Shown piece after piece: positions 1-17,800 of a DNA stretch of 64,000 nucleotides. The position numbers and the translations under genes were made by a program. The DNA comes from Roseomonas sp. CECT 9278 (lineage in GTDB: Bacteria > Pseudomonadota > Alphaproteobacteria > Acetobacterales > Acetobacteraceae): positions 1-64,000 of the forward strand of contig NZ_CAKKLX010000005.1 of assembly GCF_918698155.1 (NCBI RefSeq). The letters run 5' to 3'. Numbering within the stretch: the first letter of the stretch is position 1; each line of letters starts with the position of its first letter. Below the pieces are notes generated by a model, which was not told the origin of the DNA, did no database searches, and was given only the letters and a program-made list of their open reading frames with translations.

Positions 1-213
1 CCGGTACTCCGGCACCTCGCTCGTCACATCCACACCAGACCGCAACACTCCCCAGTACCCAACCGCATCCACAACACCACCAGGAACACGCACCGATAAA
101 CCAAGGATCACCAGCGGCACTCTGGCCTGCTCCACCATCGCCTCGGCGGCATCGAGCCGCGTGCGCAGCGCGCCGATCGTCTGCGCCGCGCGCTGGAGCG
201 CACCGGCCGTCAT
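1..213 (-). CDS. Type I polyketide synthase, N-terminal fragment (runs off left edge)
   Basis: Reading leftwards from an ATG at 213, this frame stays open to base 1 (71 codons). The first 30 or so residues (LQRAAQTIGALRTRLDAAEA) are heptad-like and resemble the coiled-coil docking segment that precedes a ketosynthase. From about residue 34 the text PLVILGLSVRVPGG, then YWGVLRSGVDVTSEVP, matches the start of a KS domain. The ATG overlaps the stop of the preceding PKS (ATGA), so the two are probably translated together and act as consecutive modules. Bases 1-120 are about 61% GC by my count and use rare codons such as TTA, CTT and TTG. Bases 121-210 are about 77% GC. The break falls at the docking/KS junction, so recombination or an assembly join is possible. 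Only the fragment is visible, so domain content beyond the KS start is unknown. Confidence 0.85.
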   Translation of the reverse strand, partial: MTAGALQRAAQTIGALRTRLDAAEAMVEQARVPLVILGLSVRVPGGVVDAVGYWGVLRSGVDVTSEVPEYR

Positions 214-3200
214 GCCGCGCCATCCGGAATGCCGAGCCGCGCGGCCTCGCGATCGATCAGCGCCAGCGCTTCCTCCTCGGTCATCTCCTGCGTCGCGGTG
301 TCGGGCGGCGCCGCCGCCTCGCCCAGCAGATGCGCCGACAGCGCCTCCACGTTCGGGTGGTCGAAGGTGATGGTCGCCGGCAGCGCGCGGCCCAGGCTGC
401 GCTGCAGCCGATTGCGCAGCTCGACGCTGGTCAGGCTGTCGAGGCCCATCGCGAAGAAGCCCTGCCGGCGGTCCACGACGTCGTCCGGCGGGATCGCCAG
501 CACCTCGCGCAGATGGCCCAGGATATGCGCGGCCAGCGCATCGCGCCGCAGCTCCGGCGAGCCGCCCTCCGCGCTGAACTGCGCCACCGCCGCGCCACCG
601 CCGACCGCCCGCGCGCCGGCCAGCGCGCGCCAGTCCACATCCATCACGGCCGCCTGCGCCACCCCCGCGCCCATCAGCCGCCACAGCGCCTCGAAGCAGG
701 CCTCCGGCGACATCGTCCGCAGCCCGCGGAACGGGTTGTGCCGCGCGACCGTGCCGATCTCGGCCCAGGCCCCCCAGTCGATGCACAGCCCTGGCTGCCC
801 GCGCGCACGCCGCGCCGCCGCGACCGCCGCCAGCACCGCATTGCCCGCCGCATGCGCCGCCTGGCCCGGATTGCCGATCAACGCCGCCGCCGACCCGAAC
901 AACACCAGCGGCACCTCGCCCGGCAGCAGCCGGTCGAGCAGCAGCGCGGCATCCGCCTTCGGCGCCATGGCACGGCGCAGCGCCTCGGGCGCCAGGCGCA
1001 GCAGCGCCGCATCCTCCAGCACCCCGGCCAGGTGGAAGACCGCGGCCGGCGCCACGCGCGCGACCAGCGCCGGGAGCGCCGCCGCATCGCCGACATCGAC
1101 CTGCGCCACATCGACCTCGGCGCCATGGCGGCGGATCGCCTCGATCGCTGCGCCATCGCGCGGCGCGCCCCGTGCCGCCAGCACCAGCCGCCGCGCGCCG
1201 CGCGCCGCCAGGCGTTCGGCCAGCCGCACCCCGATCCCGCCCAGCCCGCCGGTCAGCAGCAGCGTGCCGTCGGGCGGCGGCTGCCAGGCCGGCGCGGCCA
1301 GCGGCGCGGCATCCTGCACCACGCGCGCCACCAGGCGCTGCGAACCGCGTAGCGCGAATTCCCGCGCCGCCCCCGGATCGGCCAGCAGCGCATCGAGCTG
1401 CCCCGGCGCCTCGATATCCACCAGCCTCAGATCGAGCTCGGGATGCTCCAGCCGCATCACCCGGCCCAGGCCCCACAACGCCGCCTGCGCGGGTTCCGGC
1501 ACGCGGTCCTGCGCGGCCGCCGCGACGGCTCCGCGCGTGACCAGCCACACCGGGCCCGGCGGATGCGGCCGCGCGGCGATCGCCTGCAGCGCGCCGATGG
1601 CGGCGCCGGCGGGATCCGCCGCATCGGCCACCACCAGCACGGCATCCGCCGGGGTCGCCCCGATCGGCGCCGCGCCCGGCCAGGATGCGCCCCCCGCCAC
1701 CACCACGCGCGGCGGCGCCACGCGCCGCGCCAGGATCAGCGCCTGCGGAAAGGCGCCCGCATCCGGTGCCGCCAGCATCGCCGGTTCGAAGCCCTGCGCG
1801 CGCAGCAACGCATCCCAGCCGGCCGGCGCGATCAGGGTCGCGTCGCGCGGTGCCGGGCCCTCGCGATGGCGATGCCAGCCTTCCAACAGTCCGAACGTCA
1901 GGTCGACCCAGGCGCGCCGCGCCGTGCCCTCGACCAGCATCATCATCCCGCCCGGGCGCAGCCGCGCGGCGATGCGCCCCAGCGCGCCCGGCAGGTCGCG
2001 CAGCGCATGCAGCACATTGGCCGCCACCACCAGGTCGAAGCGGCGCGCATCCTCCGGCGGCGCCTCGGCATCGAGGTCGAGCGCCGCCGTCGCCAGGCCC
2101 GGGAAGCGTCGCGCGGCCGCGGCGGCGAAGCCGGCCGAGACATCGGTGAACAGGTAGTCGGCCTCGGCCAGCGCGGGCAGCAGGGCCGCCGTCGTCGCCC
2201 CCGTCCCGCCGCCCAGTTCCAGCACCGCGAGGCCCGGCCGCGCCACCGCGCGCGCGACATCGCCCGCCAGGGCGTTCATCGCCGCGAAGCACGGCGCCTC
2301 GGCATAGAGCCGCGCGACGGCGGCGGCATCGCCCTCAGGGAACAGCAAGGCCAGCGGGTCGGCGCGCCCCTGCGCCACGGCCAGCAGCTGCGCGCCCGTG
2401 CGGGCCAGCAGCGCCGCCGCCGGATCATCGCTTGCGGCCGGCGCGCCAGGCAGGCGCAGCACGCACCCCGCGCCATCCAGCACGCCGGCGCCGCGCAGTG
2501 CCGCGACCATGTCACCGACCATGCCGGCGCGCGCCGGGATGGCGCCCAGGCGCGTCGCCGCATCGGCAAGGACGGCGCCGATCGCCAGCGGTGCGCCGGC
2601 CTGCGCGAAGGCCTGCGCCACCCACTGCGCGGCGGCCTCCGCCAGGTCGTCGCCCGTTGCCGGGGGCACCGCCAGCGGCGCGAGGATCGCCGCCGGCGCG
2701 ATCCGCGCACCGATCGGCTGCACACGCCAATCGAGGCGATGCAGCAGCCCCGGCGGCACCGCCGCGCGGTCCGGCAGCAGCGCCGCGCGCGCTACGCGGC
2801 GGAAGCGGAAGCCGCGCGCCTCCAGCGCCACGCGCCCATCGCCATCGACCAGCCAGAGATCGGCGATGCGCGTCGCGTCGTCGGGTTCGTCCCGCGGCCG
2901 GCGCCGCGCCACCACCCGGCAGTCGCCGCGCGGCGGCGCATGGAGGATGATCGACCCGACCCCCTGCGGCACGAACAGCGCGCCGTCGCGCGCCAGCGAC
3001 GCGGTGTCGAACCACACGCCCTGCACCTGGAAGGCGGCGTCGAGCAGCGCGGGGTCGATCAGCAGGTCGGTCGCCATCGCCGGCGCAAGGGTGGCGGCGG
3101 CGATGGCGCCATCGGCCTGCACCGCGACCAGGCCGCGCATGGCGGGGCCGAAGGTGTAGCCGGCGGCGGCGAAGCCCTCGTAGAAGGCCGCGCCGGATTG

Positions 3201-6200
3201 CGCCGCGAGGCCGCCGGGCAGCGCGGGCGGCGGCGTTGCCGCGACGACCGCCGCGGCATGCGCTTCCATGTGCGTCGACCAGGGCGCATCGGCCGTGCCA
3301 TCGGCCTCCGCCGTGACGTAGCGGATGGCCTGGGCGCCGATCACGCATTGCGCGTCGCGCGCCGCGTCATCCGCCAGCGCGAAAGGTTCGGAAAACACCA
3401 GGTCGGCCAGTGCCGCCGGCCGGCCGAGGCGCGCGAGCGCCGTCAGCGCCACGGCGATGTGGCTGGCGGCGGGCACCACCACGCGGCCATGCAGCCGGTG
3501 GTCCTGGAAGAACGGGGCCGAGCCGGCGGTCAGGCGTGCGGCGAATCGCGCCTCCTCCGCGCCGGGCAGGACCATGCGCTGGCCGAGCACGCCGGCGCGC
3601 GGGTCGCCGGCGCCGAGCCTTGCGTCCGGGTGCGACGTTGCGTCAGTCGTCGTCGCGCCACCCGGCGCGCCATTCACGACAAGCGCGCCACCCGGCGCGC
3701 CATTCACGACAAGCGCGCCGCCGGGCGCGCCATTGGCGACAAGCGCGCGGCCCGGCGCGACATCAGCGGCACGCGCGCCCAGGGGCGCGACATCAGCGGC
3801 ACGCGCGCCCAGGGGCGCGACATCAGCGGCACGCGCGCCCAGGGGCGCGACATCCACACCCGGCGCGCCCGCCGGCAGGTCCACCCAGAAGCGGCGGCGC
3901 TCCAGCGGGCTCGCCGGCAGGTCCACGCCAGCATGCGCGCCACCATGGATGGCCCGCCAGTCGAGCGGCGCGCCCGCCCCATGCAGCGCGGCCAGCAGCG
4001 CCGCCAGCGCATCGCCATCCCCGGTCAGCGTCGGCTCGCAGGGCGGTGCGCCGACGCCGCGCGCCAGGCCGGTCAGCACCGGCAGCGGGCCGATCTCGAC
4101 CAGCACATCCGCCGGCATCCCGGCCAGCGCCGCGGCGAAGCGCACCGGCGCGCGGATCTGCCGCACCCAGTAGTCCGGGTCGGTCAGGTCGGCGAAGCCG
4201 TCGCCGCTCAGCGTCGAGAGCACCGGCAGGCGCGGCGGGTGCAGCGCCACCGCGTCCATCGCCGCCGCGAAGGGCGCCAGCGCCGGGTCCATCAGCGGCG
4301 AATGGAAGGCGTGGCTGACACGCAGCGGCATCGCGAGGATTCCCGCCGCTTCGGCACGCGCACAGACCGCGTCCATCGCGGCGGCCGCGCCGGACACCAC
4401 GCTGGCCTGCGGGCCATTCAGCGCGGCGACGCCGGCTTGCGCTTCCAGCCCGTCGAGCAGTCGCTGGGCCGCCGCCTCGTCACAACGCAAAGCGACCATC
4501 GCACCGCCCGCGGGCAAGGCCTGCATGATGCGCCCGCGGGTGGCGGCGAGGCGCAGCGCGTCCTCGAAGGACAGGATGCCGGCGGCATGGGCGGCGGCGA
4601 TCTCGCCTACCGAATGGCCGAGCACCGCGACGGGCCGAATGCCCCACCCGGCCAGCAGGTCGACCAGGGCCACCTGCACCGCGCAGATCGCCGGCTGCGC
4701 CAGGCCGGTCAGGCCGAGATCCTCGGCCGCCAGCAGGTCGTCGATGCTGCGCCCCAGCAGCGGGCGCAGCACGGCATCGGCACGATCCAGCGCGGCGCGG
4801 AAGCGCGGCAGGCGCGCGGCCAGCGCCAGCCCCATCCCGCGATGCTGGCTGCCCTGGCCGGTGAACAGGAAGCCGATGCGCGGCGTGCGCGGCGGCGCCG
4901 CCGGCCGGTCCTGCGCCGCCAGCGAGGCCAGCGCCGCGCGCAGCGCCGCCGTGCTGTCGCCGGTAACCGCGGCGCGCGCGGGCAAGACCCGCCGCCTCGC
5001 CGCCGCCGCACACAGCGCGGCAGGATCGGCCGCGCCGTCCAGCCCCTCGGCCCAGGCGGCGGCCAGGCGGCGCAGCCCCGCGCCGTCGCGCGCCGAGAGC
5101 GGCATCACCAGCGGGCCGGCGGCGCGGGCCTCGTGCGCGGGCGCCTGCTCCAGCACCGCATGCGCGTTGGTGCCGCTGAAGCCGAAGGCGCTGACCGCCA
5201 TGCGGCGTGGGCGCACCGCATCGCCCGGCCAGCCCTGCGTGCCGTCGGCCAGCCGCAGAGCCGCCTGAAGCGCCGGGCGCAGCGCCGGGTTGGGGGCGGC
5301 CAGATGCGCGATGCCCGGCACCCTGCCCGCGCGCAGCGCCATTACGCACTTGATCAGCCCGGCGATGCCCGCCGCCGCCTCGGCATGGCCGATATTGCCC
5401 TTGGCGGCGGTGACCAGCAGCGGCGCGGCGCGGGGGCCGCCATAGGCCTCGGCCAGCGCGCCGGCCTCGATCGGGTCGCCGAGCGGCGTGCCGGTGCCAT
5501 GCGCCTCGACCGCGTCGACATCACCTGGCGCGAGGCCGGCATCGGCGAGCGCCGCGGCGATCACGGCGCGCTGGGCGGCGCCGCTGGGGGCGGTCAGGCC
5601 GTTGCTGGCGCCATCCTGGTTGACCGCGCTGCCGCGCAGCACGGCCAGGATGCGGTCGCCATCCGCCTGCGCATCCGCCAGCCGCTTCAGCGCGACCAGG
5701 CCGACGCCTTCCGCGCGCGCATAGCCGGCGGCGGCCGCATCGAAGGGGCGGCAACGGCCATCGGCCGCCAGCATGCCGGCATCGGCGAAGGCGCGCGACA
5801 GGTCCGGCATCAGCAGCAGGCTGGCACCGCCCGCGAAAGCGAGCCGGCATTCCCCCGCGCGCAGGCTCCGTGCCGCGAGATGCACCGCGACCAGCGACGA
5901 CGAGCACGCGGTGTTCACCGCCAGCGCCGGCCCGGTCAGCCCGAAGGCATAGGCGAGCCGCCCGGCGGCAATGGCGTTGCTGGTGCCGGTCGCGAAATGC
6001 CCGTCCGGCACCTGCCCGGCGGCGAGCAGCCGCCGTTCCCAGTCCTGCGCGAACAACCCCAGGAACACCCCCGCCTGGCTGCCGCGCAGCGCATCGGGAT
6101 CCAGCCCGGCATGCTCCAGGGTGGCGAGCAGGGTTTCGAGCAGCAGGCGCTGCTGCGGGTCCATGCTGCGCGCCTCGCGCGCCGAGATGGCGAAGGCGGC

Positions 6201-9008
6201 GGGGTCGAAGGCCGCGACATCGTCGAGGAAGCCGCCGCGTTCGCCGGGCGTGGCGGGCCAGCGGTCGGGCGGCACCGGGCCGGTGGCGTCGCGGCCTTCC
6301 TCCATCAGTCGCCAGAAGGCATCGGCATCCGGCGCGCCAGGCAGGCGGCAGGCGAGACCGATGATGGCGATGGCGCCGTCGCTGGGCGGCAGCGCGGTGG
6401 TCACGGCGCGCGGCGCGGCCGTGTCAGCGGCAGCACGCGGCACAGCCGCGTCACCGTTCGCGCGCGGCACAGCCGCGTCACCGTTCGCGCGCGGCACAGC
6501 CGCGTCACCGTTCGCGCGCGGCACAGCCGCGTCACCGTTCGCGCGCGGCACAGCCGCGTCACCGTTCGCGCGCGGCACAGCCGCGACGGCAGCCACCACG
6601 GGCGCGGCGGCCGGCGGCGCGGGCGCTTGCGTGCCAGTCGGCGCCAGCAGCGCCTGCGCGATCCGCGCCGGCGAAGGGTGGTCGAAGAAGAACGACGCCT
6701 CCAGCCGCAGCCCGAGCCGCCGGTTCAACAGCGTGCGCAGTTCCAGCAGGTCGGCGCTGTCGAGCCCGAGGTCGCGCAGCGCCCTGTCGGCATCGAAGCG
6801 ATCGGCGCCGGCGCGCATCACGGCGCGCACGCATTCGGCCACCTGCGCCGGCAGGTCGGCCGGCGCGGCATCGGCGACGGTGGGCGCCGCGACCTCGCCG
6901 GGTTGCAGCGCGTAGGCGATCAGCACCGCATGGCCGGCATTGGCAGTGTCCTCGGGCCGGTAGCCGGGCACCAGCGCGACCAGCCGGGCGCCGCGCCCGA
7001 TATGGAAGCGCAGCGTCGCGTCGCGCGGCAGGCCATCGGCGCCGCGCGCCATCGCCCAGGCCGCGTAGTCGCCGGTGCGATCCCAGTCGCGGCAGCGGGT
7101 CAGGCCCGCCACCGCCTCCACGCCAGGCGTCAATGCCGCCCATTGCAGCGCGAAATCGGCCAGCGCATCACCCAGGCCGCGATCCTGCGCCTGCGGCCGC
7201 ACCATCAGCCCCAGCAGTTGCAGCACCGGGCCATCGTCGCGATACAGCGCATCCAGGCCGCCCCAGCGCGCACCGCGCAGCATATCCACGCTGGCGATGC
7301 GCTGGACATGCAGCGCGGCCAGGATGGCGCCGTCCTGCTCGGCCACCATGATGGCGCGCGGGCGGGCGAGGCGCGCGGCGAGCGTCGCGGCGTCATGGCG
7401 CAGCGCAGGCTCGGGCCAGCAGGCTTGCTCCAGCGCCAGCAGCGCCGGCAGGTCGGCGGCGCGCGCCGCGCGCACGCGCCAGGGCATCGGCCTGAAATGC
7501 TGCAGCTGGATGCGCGCGAAGGGGTGGATGCGCGGGTACTTGCGGAACGCGGCCGGGTCGCCGAACAGCCCGACCTCGGCGGCGGCCAGCACGAAGCTGT
7601 CCGCCGGGACCAGCTGCTGGCCCGAGAAGGCGTGGTAGGCGTCGAAATGCGGCGCCTCGGTGTCGTCGCGCCGCGACGCCACGATGGCGGGCGGCAGGCG
7701 GTGCACCTCCAGCATCATCAGGCCATGTGCGCCCAGCGCGGCGCGCCAGGCGCCGAGGTGCTCGACCAGCGACTGCATCACCGCCCCGGGCGGCACCAGC
7801 GTGCCATCGGGCGCGACGACGATGCAGCGGTCGCCATCGGCCGCGCGGGCAGACCAGTCTGCGCGCGGGGGCACCGCCGGGCGGTCGTGATCCAGGAAGG
7901 ACCGCAGGTGCAGCACGCGCGCCGGATCGACGCCGCGCGCGGCGATGTCGCGCACCAGCCGCGCCGGGTCGGCGATGTCGCCCTGCAGCAGCAGGTGCGG
8001 CAGGCCGGCGAGCGTCCGCCCGGTCGCTTCCAGCGCCGCGGCGTTGAAGTCGGTGCCCACCAGCAGCAGCGGATGGGTGGCGAGGTGGCGGCCGCGCGCG
8101 CTGCGCAGCGCGGTTTCCCAGCAGCGCCGCAGCAGCGTGCCGTCGCCGCAGCCCATGTCGACCAGCGCGGCGGGCTGCGCGTCGAGGTCCGGCGCGTCGA
8201 ACAGCGCCGCCAGCACCGCCTCGAGATCGGCGAAGTAGCGCCCGTGCTGGAAGCCGCTGGCGATCACGTTGGCGGTGCGGTCCAGATGCCGCTCGGCGCC
8301 GGAGGCGTCGCGGCGCATCACCTCCTGCGGGTCGCCGCCGAGCAGCATGGGCATGGCGTGCAGCAGCGGCGCGTAGGACCCCGCGGCGCCAGTGACCTGG
8401 CCGCGGTCGGCGACGAAGGCGCCGAGCGGCGTCGGCGCGCCGTCCGGCGTGGTCCAGCCGAGCGCCGCGAAGGCCGCGCGCAGCGGGCCCTGCGCGGTGC
8501 CGGCCGCGAGCGCGTGGCGCGCCGGCCCATTGGCCAAGGGCAGCGCCAGCGCGCCCGAGAGCTGGTCGGCCAGTTCGGCATCGCTGTCCCAGCGCCGGGC
8601 GATCCGCGGCGCGAAGCGGTCGAGCAGATCAAGCGCCGGCGCATCTAGGCGAGACCAGTCGCAGGCATAGGCATCGAGCAGGGCGTCCGGCACGGCATAC
8701 GGGCGCGCCGCCGGCAGCAAGCGCAGCACGCCGCCGGCATCCGCCGCGACCCAGCCGAGCGACTGCAGCAGGTCGAACGCGGCGGCGGCGTGGCCGGGAT
8801 TGAGCCCGGCCAGCGCGACGACGTCGGCCAGTCGCCGCGGCTGGGCGGCCAGCAGCCCGAACACGCCCCGGCGATCGAGCGCGCGCACCACCGGCACGGC
8901 GACGAAGCCGTGCGAATACCGGTTCAGCAGGTCAAGCACGTCGATGGTCCGCGATGGGTTGGGCAGGATGCCGCAAGGCGCTTCGCCGCGTTGCGCGTTC
9001 CGGGCCAC
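210..9008 (-). CDS. Type I PKS: loading module (AR-like/MT/GNAT/ACP) plus KS-AT-DH-cMT-KR-ACP
   Basis: A 2,932-residue modular PKS. Residues 1-500 form an adaptor-like region with a methyltransferase (VDMGCGDG near 280-288; LHLRSFLDHDRP near 365-377). A GNAT-like domain spans about 508-705 and an ACP about 720-790 (GLDSADL, Ser751). This order resembles the starter-forming modules of AprA and GphF, where the MT methylates malonyl-ACP and the GNAT decarboxylates it. The extension module follows: KS from about 880 (Cys1035, His1170, His1208), AT about 1380-1690 (GHSVG Ser1466; HAFH near 1567, the malonyl-type motif), DH (HRLHGRVVVP, His1837; Asp1990), C-methyltransferase (LELGGGTG near 2265), KR about 2560-2760 (TGGLGGIG; Ser2706) and ACP (GLDSLTS, Ser2858). 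No ER or thioesterase is present. The KR catalytic Tyr position is His2719. The start is a GTG 29 nt after mbtH; a slightly later start is possible. The C-terminal acidic tail (TEEEALALIDREAARL) looks like a docking helix. Confidence 0.93.
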   Translation of the reverse strand: MARNAQRGEAPCGILPNPSRTIDVLDLLNRYSHGFVAVPVVRALDRRGVFGLLAAQPRRLADVVALAGLNPGHAAAAFDLLQSLGWVAADAGGVLRLLPAARPYAVPDALLDAYACDWSRLDAPALDLLDRFAPRIARRWDSDAELADQLSGALALPLANGPARHALAAGTAQGPLRAAFAALGWTTPDGAPTPLGAFVADRGQVTGAAGSYAPLLHAMPMLLGGDPQEVMRRDASGAERHLDRTANVIASGFQHGRYFADLEAVLAALFDAPDLDAQPAALVDMGCGDGTLLRRCWETALRSARGRHLATHPLLLVGTDFNAAALEATGRTLAGLPHLLLQGDIADPARLVRDIAARGVDPARVLHLRSFLDHDRPAVPPRADWSARAADGDRCIVVAPDGTLVPPGAVMQSLVEHLGAWRAALGAHGLMMLEVHRLPPAIVASRRDDTEAPHFDAYHAFSGQQLVPADSFVLAAAEVGLFGDPAAFRKYPRIHPFARIQLQHFRPMPWRVRAARAADLPALLALEQACWPEPALRHDAATLAARLARPRAIMVAEQDGAILAALHVQRIASVDMLRGARWGGLDALYRDDGPVLQLLGLMVRPQAQDRGLGDALADFALQWAALTPGVEAVAGLTRCRDWDRTGDYAAWAMARGADGLPRDATLRFHIGRGARLVALVPGYRPEDTANAGHAVLIAYALQPGEVAAPTVADAAPADLPAQVAECVRAVMRAGADRFDADRALRDLGLDSADLLELRTLLNRRLGLRLEASFFFDHPSPARIAQALLAPTGTQAPAPPAAAPVVAAVAAVPRANGDAAVPRANGDAAVPRANGDAAVPRANGDAAVPRANGDAAVPRAAADTAAPRAVTTALPPSDGAIAIIGLACRLPGAPDADAFWRLMEEGRDATGPVPPDRWPATPGERGGFLDDVAAFDPAAFAISAREARSMDPQQRLLLETLLATLEHAGLDPDALRGSQAGVFLGLFAQDWERRLLAAGQVPDGHFATGTSNAIAAGRLAYAFGLTGPALAVNTACSSSLVAVHLAARSLRAGECRLAFAGGASLLLMPDLSRAFADAGMLAADGRCRPFDAAAAGYARAEGVGLVALKRLADAQADGDRILAVLRGSAVNQDGASNGLTAPSGAAQRAVIAAALADAGLAPGDVDAVEAHGTGTPLGDPIEAGALAEAYGGPRAAPLLVTAAKGNIGHAEAAAGIAGLIKCVMALRAGRVPGIAHLAAPNPALRPALQAALRLADGTQGWPGDAVRPRRMAVSAFGFSGTNAHAVLEQAPAHEARAAGPLVMPLSARDGAGLRRLAAAWAEGLDGAADPAALCAAAARRRVLPARAAVTGDSTAALRAALASLAAQDRPAAPPRTPRIGFLFTGQGSQHRGMGLALAARLPRFRAALDRADAVLRPLLGRSIDDLLAAEDLGLTGLAQPAICAVQVALVDLLAGWGIRPVAVLGHSVGEIAAAHAAGILSFEDALRLAATRGRIMQALPAGGAMVALRCDEAAAQRLLDGLEAQAGVAALNGPQASVVSGAAAAMDAVCARAEAAGILAMPLRVSHAFHSPLMDPALAPFAAAMDAVALHPPRLPVLSTLSGDGFADLTDPDYWVRQIRAPVRFAAALAGMPADVLVEIGPLPVLTGLARGVGAPPCEPTLTGDGDALAALLAALHGAGAPLDWRAIHGGAHAGVDLPASPLERRRFWVDLPAGAPGVDVAPLGARAADVAPLGARAADVAPLGARAADVAPGRALVANGAPGGALVVNGAPGGALVVNGAPGGATTTDATSHPDARLGAGDPRAGVLGQRMVLPGAEEARFAARLTAGSAPFFQDHRLHGRVVVPAASHIAVALTALARLGRPAALADLVFSEPFALADDAARDAQCVIGAQAIRYVTAEADGTADAPWSTHMEAHAAAVVAATPPPALPGGLAAQSGAAFYEGFAAAGYTFGPAMRGLVAVQADGAIAAATLAPAMATDLLIDPALLDAAFQVQGVWFDTASLARDGALFVPQGVGSIILHAPPRGDCRVVARRRPRDEPDDATRIADLWLVDGDGRVALEARGFRFRRVARAALLPDRAAVPPGLLHRLDWRVQPIGARIAPAAILAPLAVPPATGDDLAEAAAQWVAQAFAQAGAPLAIGAVLADAATRLGAIPARAGMVGDMVAALRGAGVLDGAGCVLRLPGAPAASDDPAAALLARTGAQLLAVAQGRADPLALLFPEGDAAAVARLYAEAPCFAAMNALAGDVARAVARPGLAVLELGGGTGATTAALLPALAEADYLFTDVSAGFAAAAARRFPGLATAALDLDAEAPPEDARRFDLVVAANVLHALRDLPGALGRIAARLRPGGMMMLVEGTARRAWVDLTFGLLEGWHRHREGPAPRDATLIAPAGWDALLRAQGFEPAMLAAPDAGAFPQALILARRVAPPRVVVAGGASWPGAAPIGATPADAVLVVADAADPAGAAIGALQAIAARPHPPGPVWLVTRGAVAAAAQDRVPEPAQAALWGLGRVMRLEHPELDLRLVDIEAPGQLDALLADPGAAREFALRGSQRLVARVVQDAAPLAAPAWQPPPDGTLLLTGGLGGIGVRLAERLAARGARRLVLAARGAPRDGAAIEAIRRHGAEVDVAQVDVGDAAALPALVARVAPAAVFHLAGVLEDAALLRLAPEALRRAMAPKADAALLLDRLLPGEVPLVLFGSAAALIGNPGQAAHAAGNAVLAAVAAARRARGQPGLCIDWGAWAEIGTVARHNPFRGLRTMSPEACFEALWRLMGAGVAQAAVMDVDWRALAGARAVGGGAAVAQFSAEGGSPELRRDALAAHILGHLREVLAIPPDDVVDRRQGFFAMGLDSLTSVELRNRLQRSLGRALPATITFDHPNVEALSAHLLGEAAAPPDTATQEMTEEEALALIDREAARLGIPDGAA
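3661..3854 (-). repeat. In-frame 30-bp tandem repeats in the AT-DH linker
   Basis: Six 30-bp units lie in unbroken register. Three (3661-3750) encode NGAPGGALVV-like decapeptides and three (3751-3840) encode ADVAPLGARA-like decapeptides, followed by a partial unit. They fall between the AT and DH domains of the PKS (about residues 1720-1783). The sequence is rich in Ala, Gly, Pro and Val with no predicted catalytic role. It is most likely an expandable flexible linker formed by slippage. Units 3781-3810 and 3811-3840 are identical, which indicates recent duplication. Confidence 0.95.
6440..6585 (-). repeat. In-frame 27-bp tandem repeats in the ACP-KS linker
   Basis: Five identical 27-bp units (6440-6574) and a partial sixth encode the nonapeptide PRANGDAAV, repeated between the loading ACP and the KS of the PKS (about residues 812-857). 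The identity of the units at DNA level indicates recent expansion. No unit-spacer structure is present, so this is a coding minisatellite and not CRISPR. Copy number may vary between strains or be misassembled. Confidence 0.96.
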
Positions 9009-9037: not shown

Positions 9038-9253
9038 TCAACCCTGACGATCACCAGCCATGGCGCGCCGCAGGCTCAGCGGCCGCATATCGGTCCAGAC
9101 CGTGTTGATGAAGGCAAGGCATTCCGCTTTCGCGCCCGTTTTTCCAACGCGCGACCAGCCGGCGGGGGGCTCGCTTGCAGCGGGCCAGATCGAATACTGT
9201 TCCTCATGATTGATCACGACATCAAATATTGTCTTGTCTTCATCTTCATCCAT
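9038..9253 (-). CDS. MbtH-like protein
   Basis: This 71-residue protein has the MbtH signature: a short acidic N-terminus, then [43 protein letters not shown]. The invariant tryptophans of the family are visible. MbtH proteins bind NRPS adenylation domains and help them fold or act. The gene ends 29 nt before the PKS start and is probably first in the minus-strand operon. Its first 20 codons (GAT, GAA, ATA, TTT, AAT) are markedly more AT-rich than the flanking PKS. No adenylation domain is in the window, so its partner is presumably encoded to the left or elsewhere in the genome. Confidence 0.93.
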
Positions 9254-10286: not shown

Positions 10287-11918
10287 GTGGCGCTCGCGGC
10301 CCTGCTGCGCCAGCACTCGGCGCAGCGCCTGGCTCGGCTGGGCGTGCTGGCCGGATTCGCCGGGCTGGGCAATGCCCTGGTCATGGCGGTCGCGAGCGAC
10401 GCCGTGCAGACCGGCCGCACCGATGCCCTGCGCCTCGCGCTGTTCCTCGTCGCGATCCTGATCTACTGCGTCGCCGAGTGGGGCTCGGTCCGCGGCCTCG
10501 CGCGGGAGGTCGAGGGCGTCGTCCACGCGCTGCGGATGCAGGTGTTCGACGCCATCCGCCGCGCCGGCTTCGCCTCGCTCATGCGCCTCAAGCCGGCCGA
10601 GGCCTATGGCGCCATCACCCGCGACAGCCAGTCGATCAGCCAGGCGGCCACCGCGCTGTCGCTGGGCGCGCGGGCGGCGCTGCTGATCGTCTTCACGCTG
10701 CTCTACCTGCTGTGGCTGTCGCCGGTCGAATTCGCCGCGCTGCTGGCGATGGCGGCGCTGATCGCCAGCCTCGTCACCTGGCGCGCGCGGCGCGACCGCC
10801 AGGCGCTGGACGATGCGGTGGCGCGCGAAAGGGCCGTGCTGCAGGACGTCACCGGGTTGCTGGATGGCTTCAAGGAGGCAAAGACATCGGCGCGCCGCGG
10901 TGCCGCGCAATTCGCCGCCATCGCGCAGGGAAGCCGCGCGGCGGCGGCGGCGCGCGGCGCCGTTGACGGCCGTGCCGCGGCCGGCGCGGTGGCGGTGCAG
11001 ACCGGCGTCTACCTGTCTCTCGCGCTGCTGGTGTTCGGGCTGCCGCTGGTGGTGCAGACCGATGCCGGCAGCCGCCAGCAGACCATCACCGCGCTGCTGT
11101 TCGCCGCCGGCAGCGTGGCGCTGCTGGTGCAATCCATCCCGGTGCTGGCGGTGGCCGACGAGGCCGCGCGCAACCTTGCCGCGCTGTCGGCGCGGCTGCC
11201 GGCGGAGGATGCCGGCCAGGGCCCGCTGCCCGATGGCCCGCCGGCGATCAGCCTGCGCGACATCGGCTTCACCTGGCGCGACGAGGCCGGCGCCGCGCTG
11301 TTCCGCGTCGGGCCCGTCAACCTCGAAGTCGCGGCCGGGCAGATCGTGTTCATTGCCGGCGGCAATGGCAGCGGCAAGACCACGCTGCTGCGCATCGCCG
11401 CGGGCCTGCTGCCCCCGGATAGCGGCACGCTGTTCTATCGCGGCACGGCCATAGCGCCGGACAACCGGCAGACCTATCGCGACCGGGTCGGCAGCGTATT
11501 CTCCGACATGCACCTGTTCCGCCGGCCCTACGGGATCGACCCCGACCCCGCGGTGCTCGCCGCGCTGCTGCGCGACTACGGGCTGGAGGGCAAGGTCTCG
11601 TTGCGCGCGGACGGCGCGTGGGAGGGGCTGGCGCTGTCGGGTGGGCAGCGCAAGCGGCTGGGCATCGTGTCGCTGCTGCTGGAGGCGCCGCGCATCGTCA
11701 TCCTCGACGAATGGGCGGCGGACCAGGATCCCTCCTTCCGCCGGCACTTCTATGAGGAAGTGCTGCCCGCCTTGCGCCGGCGCGGCTGTGCGGTGCTCTG
11801 CGCCACCCATGACGATCGCTATTTCGCCACGGCGGATTGCTGCTACATCCTGCGCGACGGGAGGCTCGACGTGCTGGCGCCCAGCCCCCCGCCGACCAGT
11901 GAGGAGCCGACGGAGTGA
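10287..11918 (+). CDS. Cyclic-peptide-type ABC exporter (PvdE/SyrD family), first copy
   Basis: A 543-residue half-transporter with a six-helix membrane domain in the first 290 residues and a fused ATPase. Walker A (GGNGSGKTT) is near residue 360 and the signature LSGGQRKRL near 452. Walker B is in ILDEWAADQDPSFRRHFYEEVLP, whose AADQDP continuation is characteristic of the PvdE/SyrD/YojI cyclic-peptide exporters. CATHDDRY provides the H-loop. PvdE moves the acylated pyoverdine precursor to the periplasm, so this copy could move the cluster product or an intermediate across the inner membrane. It starts with GTG 4 nt after the small membrane gene and ends in a GTGA overlap with the SPFH gene. 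A second copy lies downstream; the two could pair as a heterodimer. Confidence 0.9.
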   Translation: MALAALLRQHSAQRLARLGVLAGFAGLGNALVMAVASDAVQTGRTDALRLALFLVAILIYCVAEWGSVRGLAREVEGVVHALRMQVFDAIRRAGFASLMRLKPAEAYGAITRDSQSISQAATALSLGARAALLIVFTLLYLLWLSPVEFAALLAMAALIASLVTWRARRDRQALDDAVARERAVLQDVTGLLDGFKEAKTSARRGAAQFAAIAQGSRAAAAARGAVDGRAAAGAVAVQTGVYLSLALLVFGLPLVVQTDAGSRQQTITALLFAAGSVALLVQSIPVLAVADEAARNLAALSARLPAEDAGQGPLPDGPPAISLRDIGFTWRDEAGAALFRVGPVNLEVAAGQIVFIAGGNGSGKTTLLRIAAGLLPPDSGTLFYRGTAIAPDNRQTYRDRVGSVFSDMHLFRRPYGIDPDPAVLAALLRDYGLEGKVSLRADGAWEGLALSGGQRKRLGIVSLLLEAPRIVILDEWAADQDPSFRRHFYEEVLPALRRRGCAVLCATHDDRYFATADCCYILRDGRLDVLAPSPPPTSEEPTE

Positions 11919-12958
11919 AGCGTTTCGGAGGCTTCGGCGCGTTCCTGGACCGCAACGCCATGCGCATCACGGTCGCGATGGCGGGCGTGTTCCTGCTGCT
12001 GGTCGCGGTGGTGCCGAACGCCGTCTTCGCGGTGGGGTCGGGCGAGGTCGGGGTGATCTGGAGCCGCTTCGGCGGCGGCACGCGCATCGACCGCGTGTTC
12101 CGCGAAGGCACCCACGTCAAATGGCCCTGGGACATCATCACGATCTACAACGTGCGCACCCAGACCGACACGCACACCTACCAGGCGCTGTCGTCGGAAG
12201 GCGTGCAGGTCACCGCCGAGGTCACCTACCGCTACCAGGTGCAGGCACCCGATGCCGGGCTGCTGCACAAGGAGGTCGGGCCGGACTACCTGAACGTGGT
12301 CGTGCGCCCCGAGGTCGGCGCGGCGCTGCGCAGCGCGATCGGCAGCTTCACCGCCGAGATTCTCTACAGCAATCGCCGCGACGAGGTGCAGGACCGCATC
12401 GAGACCATCATCGAGACCTGGTCGACGCAGGGAAGGATCGGCGGCGTGCCGGTGGTGCGCGTGATCTCCCTGCAGGATGTGCTGATCCGCGGCGTGATCC
12501 TGCCGACGGCGCTGCAGGCGGCGATCGAACGCAAGATGATCGAGAACGAGCTGTCGCAGGAATTCGTCTTCCGCCTGCAGCGGGAGCGGCTGGAGGCCGA
12601 GCGCAAGCGCATCGAGGCCGCCGGCATCCGCGACTTCCAGCAGATCGTCGGCGGCAACCTGACCGAGCAATACCTGCGCTGGCGCGGCATCGACGCGACA
12701 CTGCACCTGGCGCAATCGCCCGGCAGCCGGCTGGTCATCATCGGCGGGCGCGACGGGCTGCCGGTCATCCTGAACCCGTCGGGCGGGCCGGAGCCTGCCG
12801 GCACCGACGCCCCGGCCGCGCCGCCCGGCGTACTGCCCGGCCTGGTCCCGGGCCCGCGCATCGGCAGCCCATCGAGCCTGCCGAGCCGACCGCTGCCGCC
12901 GATGGGCGAGCTTCCCCAGCCCATGATCGCGCCGCGCGATGACCAGTCTCGCCCTTGA
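11915..12958 (+). CDS. SPFH/band-7 (prohibitin-like) membrane protein
   Basis: This 347-residue protein has one N-terminal membrane anchor (about residues 17-38, MRITVAMAGVFLLLVAVVPNAVF). A band-7/SPFH domain follows (VGSGEVGVIWSRFGGGTRIDRVFREG, then YQALSSEGVQVTAEVTYRYQV and SFTAEILYSNRRDEVQDRIE). A helical region (ERKMIENELSQEFVFRLQRERLEAERKRIEA) follows, and the tail is proline-rich. Family members form ring-like scaffolds that organise membrane proteins. Its GTG start overlaps the ABC exporter stop, and it overlaps the thioesterase start by 20 bp, so it is co-translated with cluster genes. That placement is unusual for this family and suggests a scaffold for the exporters, which is my inference. 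Confidence 0.85.
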   Translation: MKRFGGFGAFLDRNAMRITVAMAGVFLLLVAVVPNAVFAVGSGEVGVIWSRFGGGTRIDRVFREGTHVKWPWDIITIYNVRTQTDTHTYQALSSEGVQVTAEVTYRYQVQAPDAGLLHKEVGPDYLNVVVRPEVGAALRSAIGSFTAEILYSNRRDEVQDRIETIIETWSTQGRIGGVPVVRVISLQDVLIRGVILPTALQAAIERKMIENELSQEFVFRLQRERLEAERKRIEAAGIRDFQQIVGGNLTEQYLRWRGIDATLHLAQSPGSRLVIIGGRDGLPVILNPSGGPEPAGTDAPAAPPGVLPGLVPGPRIGSPSSLPSRPLPPMGELPQPMIAPRDDQSRP

Positions 12959-13718
12959 TCCGCGCGCCGCGGCGTCGCGCTGGGCCGTGCCGGACCCCCG
13001 GCCCGGGCCCTTCGGCGCGCGGCTGTTCCTGCTGCCGCATGCCGGCGGCGGCGCCAACACCTATCGCGCCTGGCCCGCGCTGCTGCCGGCCGGGATCGAG
13101 GCGCTGGCCATCCAGCTCCCGGGCCGCGAGCGCCGCTTCGGCGAGGCGCCGCTGACGCAGATGGACGCGCTGATCGATGCGCTGGTGCCCGCCATGGCGC
13201 CGCTGCTCGACCGTCCCTTCGCCTTGTTCGGGCACAGCATGGGGGCCTGCATCGGCCATGCACTGGTGCATCGGCTGCGCGCCGAGGGCCTGCCGGCGCC
13301 GCGCCTGCTGATTGCCGCGGGCCACGACGCGCCAACCCATCCGCGCCCGCGCCAGGCGCTGCACACCCTGCCCGAGGCGGAGTTCCTCGATGCGCTGCGC
13401 GCGCTGGGCGGCACGCCGCCCGAGGTGCTGGCCCATCGCGAATTGCTCGACCTGCTGCTGCCGATGCTGCGCGCGGATTTCTCGGTGATCGCCAGCTATC
13501 GCCCCGGCCCGGCGCGCTTCGACTGCCCGGTGCTGGTGCTGGATGGCAGCGCGGATGCCGAGACGACGCAAGCGGGCCTGGCCGCATGGGCCGGCTGCAC
13601 CACGGCGGGCGTCGAGGCCACGACCCTGCCGGGCGGGCATTTCTTCCCCGACGAACAGCGCCAGCGTGTGCTCGACCTGGTCGTCGCGGCACTTCGGCGC
13701 CACGGCATCGAGGCCTGA
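12939..13718 (+). CDS. Type II thioesterase
   Basis: A 259-residue alpha/beta-hydrolase of the family that removes misprimed acyl groups from PKS/NRPS carrier proteins. It shows LFLLPHAGGGANTYRAW near the N-terminus, the nucleophile in FGHSMGA (Ser100), a likely acid at Asp206 (LDGSAD) and the histidine in LPGGHFFPDE (His234). Length fits the family. It overlaps the SPFH gene by 20 bp and precedes the RND genes by 42 nt. As the visible PKS lacks a release domain, it might also help release product, although editing is the usual role. Confidence 0.93.
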   Translation: MTSLALDPRAAASRWAVPDPRPGPFGARLFLLPHAGGGANTYRAWPALLPAGIEALAIQLPGRERRFGEAPLTQMDALIDALVPAMAPLLDRPFALFGHSMGACIGHALVHRLRAEGLPAPRLLIAAGHDAPTHPRPRQALHTLPEAEFLDALRALGGTPPEVLAHRELLDLLLPMLRADFSVIASYRPGPARFDCPVLVLDGSADAETTQAGLAAWAGCTTAGVEATTLPGGHFFPDEQRQRVLDLVVAALRRHGIEA

Positions 13719-13760: not shown

Positions 13761-14864
13761 ATGAAGCGCGCGCTGATCGCGGTGCTGGTCGTCGTGCTGC
13801 TCGGCGCCGGGTACTACTATTACCGCACCACCACGACCGCTGCGCCGGCGGCCGGTGCGGCCGCGCCCGCCGCCGCGCCGATCCCAGTGCAGACCGCGCC
13901 CGCCGGCACCGCGACCGTGGTGGACCTGCTGCCGGCCTATGGTTCGCTGCGGCCGCGCCTGCTGGTCACCATCACCGCGCCGCAGGCCGCGCCGCTGCGC
14001 CGTATCCTGTTCACCGACGGCGCGAGCGTGGAGGCCGGCACGCCGCTCGCGATGCTCGACGACAGCGTGGCGCAGGCGCAACTGACCGCGGCCCGCGCCA
14101 AGCTGCTGACCGACCAGCAGAACCTGCGCCGCGTGACCGACCTGGCGCGCCGCGGCCTCGACAGCACGCAGTCGGTCGAGCAGGCGCAGAGCACCGTGGC
14201 GTCGTCGCAGGCGACGGTGCTGGTCAATGAACGGCAACTCGAACTGACGACGCTGCGCGCGCCCTTCGCCGGCGCGCTGGGCACGCGCTACGTCGACGAA
14301 GGCGCAATGCTGAACGCCGGCGACCGCATCGTGATGATCGAGGACCGCTCGCGGCTGTTCGTCGAGATCCGCGTCGCCGGGCGCTACCTGCCGCGCCTGC
14401 GCCAGGGCATGCCGGTGCGCCTCGACATCCCCGACATCCAGGAGGAGCTGGGGCCGGGCGTGCTGACCTTCGTCGATACCTCGGTGTCGGTGGATACGCG
14501 GTCGGTGCTGCTGCGCGCCGAGATCGAGAATCCCGGCGACCGCCTGACGCCAGGGCTGTTCGTGCGGGTGGTGCTGCAGCTCGCGACCCGCGCGGATGCG
14601 GTGGTGGTGCCGGCCGATGCGCTGGTGCGGGAGCTGGTGGGCAGCTTCGTCTATGTCATCGACAATGGCGTGGCGGTGCGCCGGGCGGTGACGCTCGGCA
14701 CCCACCAGGACAACATGGTCGAGATCCGCGACGGTCTGAAGGCGGGCGATCGCATCGTCACGGTCGGCGCCTTCCGGCTGCGCGACGGCGACCGTGTGCA
14801 GGAGACCGCCGCGCCGCCGGCGAGCGCACCGGCCGCGGCGGCCGCGCCCGCTGGCGGTGGCTGA
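13761..14864 (+). CDS. RND efflux membrane fusion (periplasmic adaptor) protein
   Basis: A 367-residue HlyD/AcrA-type adaptor. It has an N-terminal hydrophobic anchor (about residues 4-19), an Ala/Pro linker, and a lipoyl-like half (VTITAPQAAPLRRILFTDGASVEAGTPLAMLDDS). A helical hairpin follows (AQLTAARAKLLTDQQNLRRVTDLARRG). The second lipoyl half (LRAPFAGALGTRYVDEGAMLNAGDRIVMIED) and beta-barrel segments complete it. It links the inner-membrane pump to the outer-membrane channel encoded next. Its stop shares a base with the pump start. Confidence 0.92.
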   Translation: MKRALIAVLVVVLLGAGYYYYRTTTTAAPAAGAAAPAAAPIPVQTAPAGTATVVDLLPAYGSLRPRLLVTITAPQAAPLRRILFTDGASVEAGTPLAMLDDSVAQAQLTAARAKLLTDQQNLRRVTDLARRGLDSTQSVEQAQSTVASSQATVLVNERQLELTTLRAPFAGALGTRYVDEGAMLNAGDRIVMIEDRSRLFVEIRVAGRYLPRLRQGMPVRLDIPDIQEELGPGVLTFVDTSVSVDTRSVLLRAEIENPGDRLTPGLFVRVVLQLATRADAVVVPADALVRELVGSFVYVIDNGVAVRRAVTLGTHQDNMVEIRDGLKAGDRIVTVGAFRLRDGDRVQETAAPPASAPAAAAAPAGGG

Positions 14865-17800
14865 TGGATCTCTCGAACTTCTGCATACGCCGGCCGGTCT
14901 TCACCATCGTCATCAACGCGATCGTGGTGCTGCTCGGGCTGTGGGCGCTGACCACGCTGCAGGTGCGCCAGCTGCCCGACTTCGTGATGGCGAATGTCTC
15001 GGTCGACACGGTGTTTCCCGGCGCGGCGCCGGCACTGGTGGAATCGCAGGTGACATCGCCGCTGGAACAGGCGCTGGCCGCGGTGCCGGGCGTCGCGACC
15101 ATGACCAGCACCAGCCGCCAGGGGCTCAGCTCCATCCAGCTGACCTTCGCGGTCGGCGTCGCGCCGCAGGATGCGGTCAGCGACGTGCGCGCGGCGATGG
15201 GCCAGGTGGTCGGGCTGCTGCCGGCCGGTGCGCTGGCGCCGAGCGTGTCGCAGGCGGCCAGCAACGCGCAGCCGGTGCTGTACGTGTCGTTCTCGGACCA
15301 GCGGCGCGACGCGATGGAGGTGACCGACACCGTCCGGCGCACCATGCTGCCGATGCTGTCCAATATTCCCGGCGTGGCGCAGAACCAGCTGATCGGCGAC
15401 CGCAAATACGCCATCCGCATCCGGCTCAACACGCTCAGCATGGCGGCGCACGGCGTCACGGTGGACGACGTGACGAATGCACTGGCGACGCAGAACGTGG
15501 ACGTGCCGGGCGGGCAGTTCCGCAGCCGCGACCAGATCATCTCGGTGCTGGTCAGCACGGCGCTGAACCGGCCCGACCAGTTCGAACAGCTGGTGCTGCG
15601 CCGCGGCGAGGACGGCTTCCAGATCCGCATCGGCGATGTCGGCACCGCCATGGTCGGGCCGGATACGGCGGCGAATGCCATCCGCTATGCCGGGCAGACC
15701 GCCGTCGCTGTGGGCGTGGTGCCGCAATCCACCGCCAATCCGCTCGATATCGGCAAGGCGGTGCGCGCCATGCTGCCCGCACTCCAGGCTGCGGCGCCGC
15801 CGGGGATGCAGGTGGCGATCGCCTTCGACACCTCGATTTTCGTGCAGGCCAGCGTCGATGAGGTGTTCAAGGCGGTGATCGTCGCCGTGCTGCTGGTGCT
15901 GGCGGTGGTGGTGGTGTTCCTGGGGTCGCTGCGCACCAGCGTGATCGCGCTGCTGACCATCCCGGTCTCGCTGGTCGGTGCCTTCCTGGTGATGAAGATG
16001 TTCGGCTTCAGCATCAACATTTTCAGCCTGCTGGCGATGATCCTGGCCGTCGGGCTGGTGGTGGACGACGCGATCGTCGAGGTCGAGAACGTCCAGCGCC
16101 TGGTCGATGGCGGCATGGACCCGATGGCCGCCACCTTCCGCGGCAGCGAGGAAGTGGGCTTCGCGGTCATCGCCACCACCATCACCCTGGCATCGGTCTT
16201 CGCGCCGGTCGGGCTGGTGAGCGGCATGGTCGGCCAGTTGTTCCGCGAATTCGCCTTCACCCTGGCGGCGACCATCCTGATCAGCGGCTTCGTGGCGCGC
16301 ACCCTCTCGCCCATGCTGTGCGGGCGGCTGGTGCGGCCCAAGAAGCCAGGCGGCTGGGCGCAGCGCATGGACCGCGCGCTGGAATGGCTGGCCGGCCATT
16401 ACGCACGGCTGCTGCGCTGGCTGCTGCGCCGGCGCTGGCTGGTGGGCGTGCTGTGCGTGCTGTGCATCATCGGCACCGCGCAGGTGGCCGGCAGCATCCC
16501 CGCCGAGGAAGCACCGGTCGAGGACGACGCCTATGCGCTGATCCAGTTGCAGGGGCCCACCACCGCCTCGCTCGACTACCTGTCGCGCTGGGCGGCGGAA
16601 GCCGAGGCCGCCTTCCACGCGCAGCCCGAGGTGGTGGACGCGTTGGTGCTGGTCGGCACGCCGTTGCCCAACCAGGTGCTGTCCTTCGTGGTGTTCCGCG
16701 ACTGGACGCAGCGCACCCGCAACAGCACCCAGATCACCGCCAGCATCATGGAGCGGCTGTCGAAGCTGCCGGGCGTCTCGGCCAGCGTGTTTGCCGCCGG
16801 GGGCCTGGGCGGCGGCGCGGCGGGCCAGGCGGTGCAGGTCGTGCTGCGCACCAATTCGGACTACGAGACGCTCGCGCAGGCGGTCGATACGCTGCGCACC
16901 GCGGCCGCCACCCAGGCGACCCAGGCCACCAACATCACCAGCGACCTGGTGATGAACACCCCGCAGGTGGTGGTCGAGGTGGACCGCCTGCTGGCCGCCG
17001 ACCTGGGCGTGCCGGTGGCGTCGGTGGGCACCACCATCCAGGCGCTGCTGGGCGGCAACCGTGCATCGACCTTCAACTACGGCGGCGCGGTCTACAACGT
17101 GATCGTGGACCTGCCGCAGGACCTCCAGGGCGACCCCAGCGCGCTGGATCGCGTGTACCTGCGCGGGCGCGCCGATTCGCCGGTCTCGCTGGGCTCGCTG
17201 GTGACGGCGAGCGAGGTGCCCGGGCCGGCGGTGCTGTCGCATACCGGCGGGCAGCGCAGCGCCACCATCGGCGCCGACCTGCGCCCCGGCGCCACTGCCG
17301 GCGAGGCGACCGACGAGCTCATCCGCATCGCCTCCAGCGTGCTGCCCGCCACCATCCGGGTCGAGGCCGCCGGCGGCGCGGCCGCGACAGCACAGGGCAC
17401 CAGCGACCTTGGCACGGTCTTCCTGCTGTCGATCGTGTTCATCTACCTGGTGCTGAGCGCCCAGTTCGAGAGCTTCCGCGATCCCGCGATCGTGCTGCTG
17501 GCGGTGCCGCTCGCGATCTGCGGCGCGCTGGTCGGGCTGCTGTGGATGGGTGGGTCGCTGAACCTTTACAGCGGCATCGGCATCATCACGCTGATCGGGC
17601 TGATCGCGAAGCACGGGATCCTGATCACGGAATTCGCCAACCAGCTGCGCGACGAAGGCCGCAGCTTCGAGGACGCGCTGGTCGAGGCCGCGGCGATGCG
17701 CCTGCGCCCGATCATCATGACCACCGTCGCGACCGTGCTCGGCGCGCTGCCGCTGGTGCTGGCCACCGGCGCGGGCGCCGCCAGCCGGGCGCAGATCGGC

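What the first reader, a model, noticed from the sequence alone, without database searches (positions are those of the whole stretch)
6580..9008. Rare methyltransferase-GNAT-ACP loading module in an alphaproteobacterial PKS
The first 790 residues carry an adaptor-like segment, a methyltransferase (VDMGCGDG, LHLRSFLDHDRP), a GNAT-like domain and an ACP before the first KS. From established work this order is known from cyanobacterial and myxobacterial systems such as apratoxin (AprA) and gephyronic acid (GphF), where malonyl-ACP is methylated and decarboxylated to make a branched starter. Finding it in what looks like a Rhodospirillales genome implies an acetyl, propionyl or isobutyryl-like starter and possibly an undescribed metabolite.
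Basis: partly seen in the sequence, partly recalled or inferred. Interest (0 to 1): 0.78.

Follow-up and report, generated by a model that had tools for sequence, protein, structure and literature searches.

The report
Methyltransferase-GNAT starter module of a PKS
The first part of a large antibiotic-type synthase in a relative of acetic acid bacteria is a known kind of starter module that probably methylates and decarboxylates malonate to make an isobutyryl starter; such modules are known elsewhere but scarce in this bacterial class, and the product is unknown.

The parts
8745..8936 (-). AprA_N lid/adaptor at the start of the loading methyltransferase (residues 25-88)
   Evidence: Pfam PF23526 43.6 bits; coordinates
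8331..8492 (-). winged-helix part of the loading MT (residues 173-226)
   Evidence: Pfam PF23589 21.6 bits, below cut-off 27; 32.0 bits in the Acidisphaera orthologue
7500..8294 (-). AprA MT1-type SAM-dependent C-methyltransferase core (residues 239-503)
   Evidence: Pfam PF23525 296 bits; PDB 7uci/6b39; fold
6897..7487 (-). GNAT-like decarboxylase (residues 508-704) with W531, T637, H669, R684
6642..6869 (-). loading ACP (residues 714-789), phosphopantetheine serine S751 in GLDSA
6375..6641 (-). ACP-KS linker carrying 6.7 copies of a 27-bp (9-aa) tandem repeat
   Evidence: 6406-6585, 94% matches
210..6374 (-). first extension module KS-AT-DH-CMT-KR-ACP of the same protein (KS 5127-6374, AT 4059-4871, DH 2778-3587, CMT 1902-2270, KR 759-1268, ACP 327-524)
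9038..9253 (-). MbtH-like protein directly upstream of the PKS
   Evidence: Pfam PF03621 75.9 bits; 86% identical in Acidisphaera over 65 residues
1..213 (-). N-terminus of a second PKS (docking region and KS start), overlapping the PKS1 stop and cut by the contig end
   Evidence: 56% identical to Acidisphaera PKS2 over 71 residues, its best match
10287..12958 (+). divergent ABC transporter (10287-11918) and SPFH/Band 7 protein (11915-12958), conserved beside the Acidisphaera cluster
   Evidence: 64% and 54%
12939..13718 (+). stand-alone thioesterase (type II like)
   Evidence: Pfam PF00975 142.8 bits; no counterpart at E 1e-10 in the Acidisphaera stretch
13761..19266 (+). tripartite RND exporter: HlyD-type adaptor 13761-14864, AcrB-type pump 14864-17938, outer-membrane factor ending at 19266 (true start inside the listed frame)
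   Evidence: only a 30% match for the pump in the Acidisphaera stretch
19263..21580 (+). second ABC transporter (19263-20891) and Sfp-type phosphopantetheinyl transferase (20888-21580)
   Evidence: 69% and 55% in Acidisphaera

Best explanation
It is an AprA MT1/SxtA-family loading module at the head of a hybrid PKS-NRPS assembly line. Proposed steps: malonyl is placed on the loading ACP (inferred; the loader is unknown, possibly the module-1 AT, which carries the HAFH malonyl-type motif); the metal- and SAM-dependent MT methylates C2 of malonyl-ACP, most likely twice, to dimethylmalonyl-ACP (inferred); the GNAT-like domain decarboxylates it to isobutyryl-ACP (inferred from kept residues); the KS of the same protein takes isobutyryl and extends it with malonyl, which the in-module CMT can methylate, giving a 2,4-dimethylpentanoyl-type unit of uncertain beta-reduction state (inferred). 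Later PKS and NRPS proteins (several with methyltransferase domains) and a terminal TE finish a lipopeptide-like product that is exported (inferred from synteny with Acidisphaera). Shown: domain order, fold, family, active-site residues and cluster conservation. Not shown: any activity or product.
Against: No enzyme activity or metabolite was measured. A208 is neither the AprA Thr nor the SxtA Ile; with H459 it occurs in 1 of 80 other loci. Methylation extent rests on three residues that do not split the family cleanly (H459 goes with T208 in 29 of 80 loci but with I208 in 14), and the literature on them was read only second-hand. Of 97 columns conserved in at least 90% of the other rows the window differs in 7, among them S151 for Asp (40 of 41) and F132 for Trp (38 of 41). 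WH_AprA is below its Pfam cut-off. The tree groups the window with neither the AprA nor the SxtA rows. The C. terminator GNAT lacks the Trp (MTHR) and was not called by Pfam at E 1e-5, so that calibration rests on alignment. The module-1 KR has His where the Corallococcus KR has Tyr, so the later chemistry is uncertain. The rest of the cluster lies on other contigs and is linked only by synteny.
Confidence: 0.62

Rival explanations
1. Same module, but the MT adds only one methyl, so the starter is propionyl, as in SxtA.
For: SxtA (7uci) is the best sequence and structure match. A208 does not reproduce the AprA Thr exactly.
Against: The window has Y458/H459 and a small residue at 208, against F/Q/I in the SxtA row P0015 (F/Q/V in P0019); the 70%-identical Acidisphaera orthologue has AprA-like T/Y/H. 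In the tree the window does not group with the SxtA rows, nor with the AprA rows.
Confidence: 0.22
2. The MT is idle or bypassed and the GNAT simply decarboxylates malonyl-ACP to acetyl-ACP, as in CurA or LynB1.
For: GNAT residues match CurA; LynB1 is described with only a minimal MT lid and a probable acetyl starter (PMC10127204, passages).
Against: The MT is full length here and keeps 22 of 22 invariant columns, and it is conserved at 70% identity with Acidisphaera.
Confidence: 0.08
3. A different starter: pivaloyl as in apratoxin, or another acyl group handled by the GNAT.
For: The MT is AprA-like at the gate residues.
Against: AprA-type proteins carry a further MT (hits P0030, P0031, P0033 have Methyltransf_11/25 besides PF23525); the window loading region has none before the ACP. 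The window GNAT keeps W/T/H/R, whereas the AprA-type rows read QLHE there.
Confidence: 0.05
4. The cluster is decaying and makes no product.
For: The module-1 KR has His for the usual Tyr; the genome assembly breaks inside the cluster.
Against: The large frames found here are open; the contig ends cut a KS, a region after an AT, a stretch after a KS, and a C domain. PKS1 segments are 62-74% identical to Acidisphaera with full domains. The same His is in PKS1-3 of the Acidisphaera cluster.
Confidence: 0.03

Closest known systems
SxtA MT-decarboxylase didomain (PDB 7uci, 7ucl)
   Different: SxtA-type hits have I or V/F/Q at the gate positions and carry an aminotransferase domain (PF00155 in P0015, P0019); the window protein goes on to a KS
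AprA MT1-GNAT (PDB 6b39, 6b3a, 6b3b, 7uch)
   Same: AprA_N, MT1 core, Y/H at 458/459, small gate residue
   Different: AprA-type rows read QLHE at the four GNAT positions and carry a further MT; the window GNAT keeps the residues
GphF (gephyronic acid; GNAT solved as 6mfc)
   Same: GNAT-like decarboxylase 43-44% identical; isobutyryl starter by decarboxylation of dimethylmalonyl-ACP according to PMC10100342
   Different: only the GNAT part of GphF was available for comparison; GphF has Ser at the Thr position
Thiamyxin-type locus of Corallococcus terminator (L034, L120)
   Same: first protein with the same domain order and AprA-type gate; 43% identity over residues 24-1710
   Different: different NRPS part; KR has Tyr; GNAT has Met at the Trp position
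Acidisphaera sp. S103 cluster (L024, L105-L109)
   Same: orthologous loading module (70%), MbtH, PKS, NRPS, TE and transporter genes in the same order as far as the contigs allow
   Different: shorter ACP-KS and AT-DH linkers; one NRPS is in two frames; thioesterase and HlyD genes of the window have no counterpart in the stretch

Membership tests
AprA MT1/SxtA-type loading module (MT-GNAT-ACP) | N-terminal lid (AprA_N) followed by the AprA-type MT core | tested here: met
   PF23526 43.6 bits and PF23525 296 bits, both over cut-off
AprA MT1/SxtA-type loading module (MT-GNAT-ACP) | winged-helix segment (WH_AprA) | tested here: inconclusive
   21.6 bits, cut-off 27; orthologue 32.0; segment modelled at pLDDT 89-96 per ten residues
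AprA MT1/SxtA-type loading module (MT-GNAT-ACP) | same fold as the solved didomains | tested here: met
AprA MT1/SxtA-type loading module (MT-GNAT-ACP) | SAM loop and invariant residues of the family | tested here: met
   22 of 22 columns invariant in 43 other rows kept
AprA MT1/SxtA-type loading module (MT-GNAT-ACP) | metal ligands | not tested
   the structure papers are not held, so the ligands were not identified
AprA MT1/SxtA-type loading module (MT-GNAT-ACP) | metal-dependent methyl transfer to malonyl-ACP | not testable with these tools
   needs enzyme assay
AprA MT1/SxtA-type loading module (MT-GNAT-ACP) | ACP with carrier serine directly after the GNAT | tested here: met
   PP-binding, GLDSA with S751
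GNAT-like decarboxylase (CurA, GphF) | fold match and W/T/H/R residues | tested here: met
GNAT-like decarboxylase (CurA, GphF) | decarboxylation of acyl-ACP | not testable with these tools
   needs enzyme assay
Dimethylating subgroup (AprA-like) | small gate residue with Tyr-His, as in AprA | tested here: inconclusive
   A208/Y458/H459; two of three residues identical to AprA, Ala in place of Thr
AprA MT2 | close match to AprA MT2 (6d6y) | tested here: not met

The most novel reading that the evidence does not exclude
Acetobacteraceae carry an undescribed family of methylated polyketide-peptides that start from an isobutyryl group built on the assembly line from malonyl and SAM, with a loading methyltransferase whose gate residue is alanine, a more open pocket than in AprA; the family is shared by the window organism and Acidisphaera sp. 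S103.
Probability: 0.5. Interest if true: 0.5.

Novelty: new member of a known kind. Interest (0 to 1): 0.4.

Why it matters
It gives a concrete, testable starter prediction for an unstudied natural-product cluster in Acetobacteraceae, adds a sparse alphaproteobacterial branch to a family of unusual metal-dependent C-methyltransferases, and offers a natural variant (Ala at the gate) for studying how one or two methyl groups are chosen. It also suggests that the thiamyxin starter is methylated by a complete loading methyltransferase that was read as a dimerisation domain.

Tried and rejected
Rejected: the opposite-strand 2401-aa frame (1443-8648 +) as a gene (codon-position measure). Rejected: the AprA MT2 label in Pfam's name for PF23525; structure and sequence point to MT1. 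Rejected: the C59 PKS (KS-AT-DH-ER-KR-ACP) as the missing PKS2; its matches to Acidisphaera PKS1-4 are 31-38% identical (34.6% to PKS2) and it lies within its own contig. Led nowhere: DNA overlap of 20 bases or more between the ends of C5 (left), C56, C59 and C73 (none); A-domain codes, of which only motif stretches were printed and no substrate was called. Paper searches: no paper held all three of Acidisphaera, nonribosomal peptide and polyketide among the 20 top-ranked listed; none of 11 papers listed for Acetobacteraceae and loading-module terms had both GNAT and polyketide; PMC8776678 on Acetobacteraceae clusters has no occurrence of GNAT, apratoxin, gephyronic or Acidisphaera. Statements on what is in print rest on listings, open-access text only; of the listed papers I opened five (PMC10100342, PMC10127204, PMC10784701, PMC8776678, PMC6855096), passages only, plus section 5 part 2 of 3 of the first.

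Recalled, not from a call: CurA residue numbers, the HAFH malonyl motif, the usual KR Tyr, the reading of TIGR01720 as an epimerisation-type domain, and the content of the AprA, SxtA and GphF structure papers (not held).
Full report
WHAT IS THERE. The window is the start of contig C5 of a 5.44-Mb draft genome in 113 contigs. The finding lies in a 2932-aa frame, 9008 to 210 on the minus strand, with the codon-position GC of a real gene. Pfam reads it as AprA_N (25-88), WH_AprA (173-226, under its cut-off), Methyltransf_36 (239-503), GNAT (521-633), ACP, KS, AT, DH, C-methyltransferase, KR, ACP. Active-site motifs are present: KS NTACSSS, AT GHSVGE, DH HRLHGRVVVP, two GLDS carrier serines. Translation probably starts at GTG 8939 (residue 24): 39 of 39 aligned relatives have Met there.

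RESIDUES. Of the 22 columns invariant in the 43 other alignment rows the window keeps 22, among them D284, G286, G288, D289 and G290 of the SAM loop, N322, R369, F371, L372, D373, H374, H417, E434 and Q464. In the wider set of 80 loci exceptions occur at column 374 (one row) and column 417 (two rows). Of 97 columns conserved in at least 90% of the other rows the window differs in 7. The GNAT keeps W531, T637, H669 and R684, aligned with CurA; 50 of 80 related loci read WTHR, and the others include loci without a GNAT there. AprA-type rows read QLHE. Three positions separate the AprA-type row P0033 (T202/Y455/H456) from the SxtA-type row P0015 (I204/F458/Q459); the window has A208/Y458/H459 and Acidisphaera T/Y/H. 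One paper states that an SxtA Ile-to-Thr change removes bulk, allows a second methylation and emulates AprA (PMC10784701, passages); window column 208 is the only Ile/Thr column between P0015 and P0033 in the MT. That this is the residue meant is my inference; a PDB title confirms F458H as a studied SxtA variant. Among the 80 loci H459 goes with T208 in 29, Q with V in 15, H with I in 14, Q with I in 7, H with V in 5, Q with T in 3, and H with A in 1; so the residues do not split the family cleanly.

CALIBRATION. A Corallococcus terminator locus (L034) has a first protein with the same domain order and T/Y/H at the gate. Pfam did not call its GNAT at E 1e-5; the GNAT is seen by alignment, with Met for Trp but T, H and R kept. 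Downstream are C-A-T with an extra C-type repeat, twice, then C-T, then C and a cut A. This fits the layout given for thiamyxin modules 3-6, and the thiamyxin paper names a similar cluster in this species (PMC10100342, passages, section 5 part 2). There, 13C-methionine feeding left two methyls that the authors assign to a doubly methylated malonyl starter, and valine did not label the starter. They report a 'dimerization domain' before the GNAT; in C. terminator this region is a complete loading methyltransferase. This supports isobutyryl as the outcome for the architecture. I compared C. terminator, not the thiamyxin producer itself.

CLUSTER. MbtH (9038-9253) precedes PKS1, and the start of a second PKS overlaps its stop and runs off the contig. 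Other contigs of the genome hold the likely remainder: C56 (MT-MT-KR-ACP end of a PKS, then NRPS proteins with methyltransferase domains, then a KS) and C73 (C-A-T-TE). In Acidisphaera sp. S103 the matching genes lie on one 415-kb contig in the order mbtH, PKS1, PKS2, PKS3, NRPS1-3, PKS4, NRPS4-5 with TE (PKS3, NRPS2 and NRPS3 of Acidisphaera were identified by comparison and motifs, not by Pfam). Identities are 62-74% for PKS1 segments, 56% for the PKS2 start over 71 residues, 64-70% for the C56 and C73 frames and 74% for the C56 KS against PKS4. A-domain core motifs number 10 in Acidisphaera and 7 in the pieces found here. On the other strand of the window are a DUF697 protein, two ABC transporters, an SPFH protein, a thioesterase, an RND pump and a phosphopantetheinyl transferase; the DUF697 protein, both ABC transporters, the SPFH protein and the transferase have counterparts of 53-69% identity beside the Acidisphaera cluster, the thioesterase and HlyD genes none. 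That C5, C56 and C73 form one cluster is inferred from this synteny.

DISTRIBUTION. The GTDB-based scan found 251 stretches encoding a relative, of which the best 80 were kept; at least 6 of the 80 are alphaproteobacterial by title (L024, L056, L063, L069, L077, L080). In the window's family 2 of 299 sampled genomes match (the window's own and the MAG of L056), and none of the 6 other same-genus genomes listed; Acidisphaera S103, which has the module, was not among the matches, so the sample is not complete. In the class 9 of 385 match at E 0.001, 8 over the cut-off, the own genome included. In an 88-row tree the window pairs with Acidisphaera (100), near an Acetobacteraceae MAG and Azospirillum (support 85); other alphaproteobacterial rows (L056, L077, L063) lie elsewhere, and so do the AprA and SxtA rows. 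Sporadic presence fits horizontal transfer or repeated loss; neither was tested further.

MECHANISM. Malonyl-ACP, methylated at C2 (probably twice), decarboxylated to isobutyryl-ACP, then extended by the same protein. The family, order and residues are shown; every chemical step is inferred.

NOVELTY. This is a new member of a known kind. GNAT-ACP initiation is published in the alphaproteobacterium Labrenzia (PMC6855096, passages). The listings of open-access searches showed no report of an MT-GNAT-ACP module in Alphaproteobacteria; subscription papers were not covered.

Noticed in passing
L034:10001-19072 and L120: The Corallococcus terminator thiamyxin-type first protein has a complete AprA-type loading methyltransferase (353 bits); the thiamyxin paper reports a dimerisation domain there and assigns the bis-methylation to that domain together with an unspecified methyltransferase of the cluster.
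   Followed up: partly
6406-6585 and 3654-3870: Two tandem-repeat linkers inside PKS1: 6.7 copies of 27 bp between ACP and KS, and 30-bp repeats between AT and DH. The Acidisphaera orthologue has shorter stretches at both places (domain positions).
   Followed up: partly
window residue 2719 (KR of PKS1, 852-854); Acidisphaera PKS1-3; C56 frame 1: The usual KR tyrosine is His in these ketoreductases, while Acidisphaera PKS4, the C59 PKS and the Corallococcus KR have Tyr. Whether they are active is open.
   Followed up: partly
L108:7391-10699: Acidisphaera PKS4 is KS-KR-ACP without an acyltransferase domain at E 1e-6, between NRPS genes.
   Followed up: no
L107:6916-7908 and L107:7899-18788: The second NRPS of the Acidisphaera cluster is in two frames, while the counterpart in the window genome (C56) is one 3973-aa frame; a sequencing error is possible.
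   Followed up: no
G000:C59:1713-9188 (-): A separate one-module PKS (KS-AT-DH-ER-KR-ACP) in the same genome, with a further KS gene at 13.9 kb.
   Followed up: no
L093: Candidatus Endobugula sertula has a relative of the loading methyltransferase in a 4390-aa frame, without the GNAT residues at the aligned positions.
   Followed up: no
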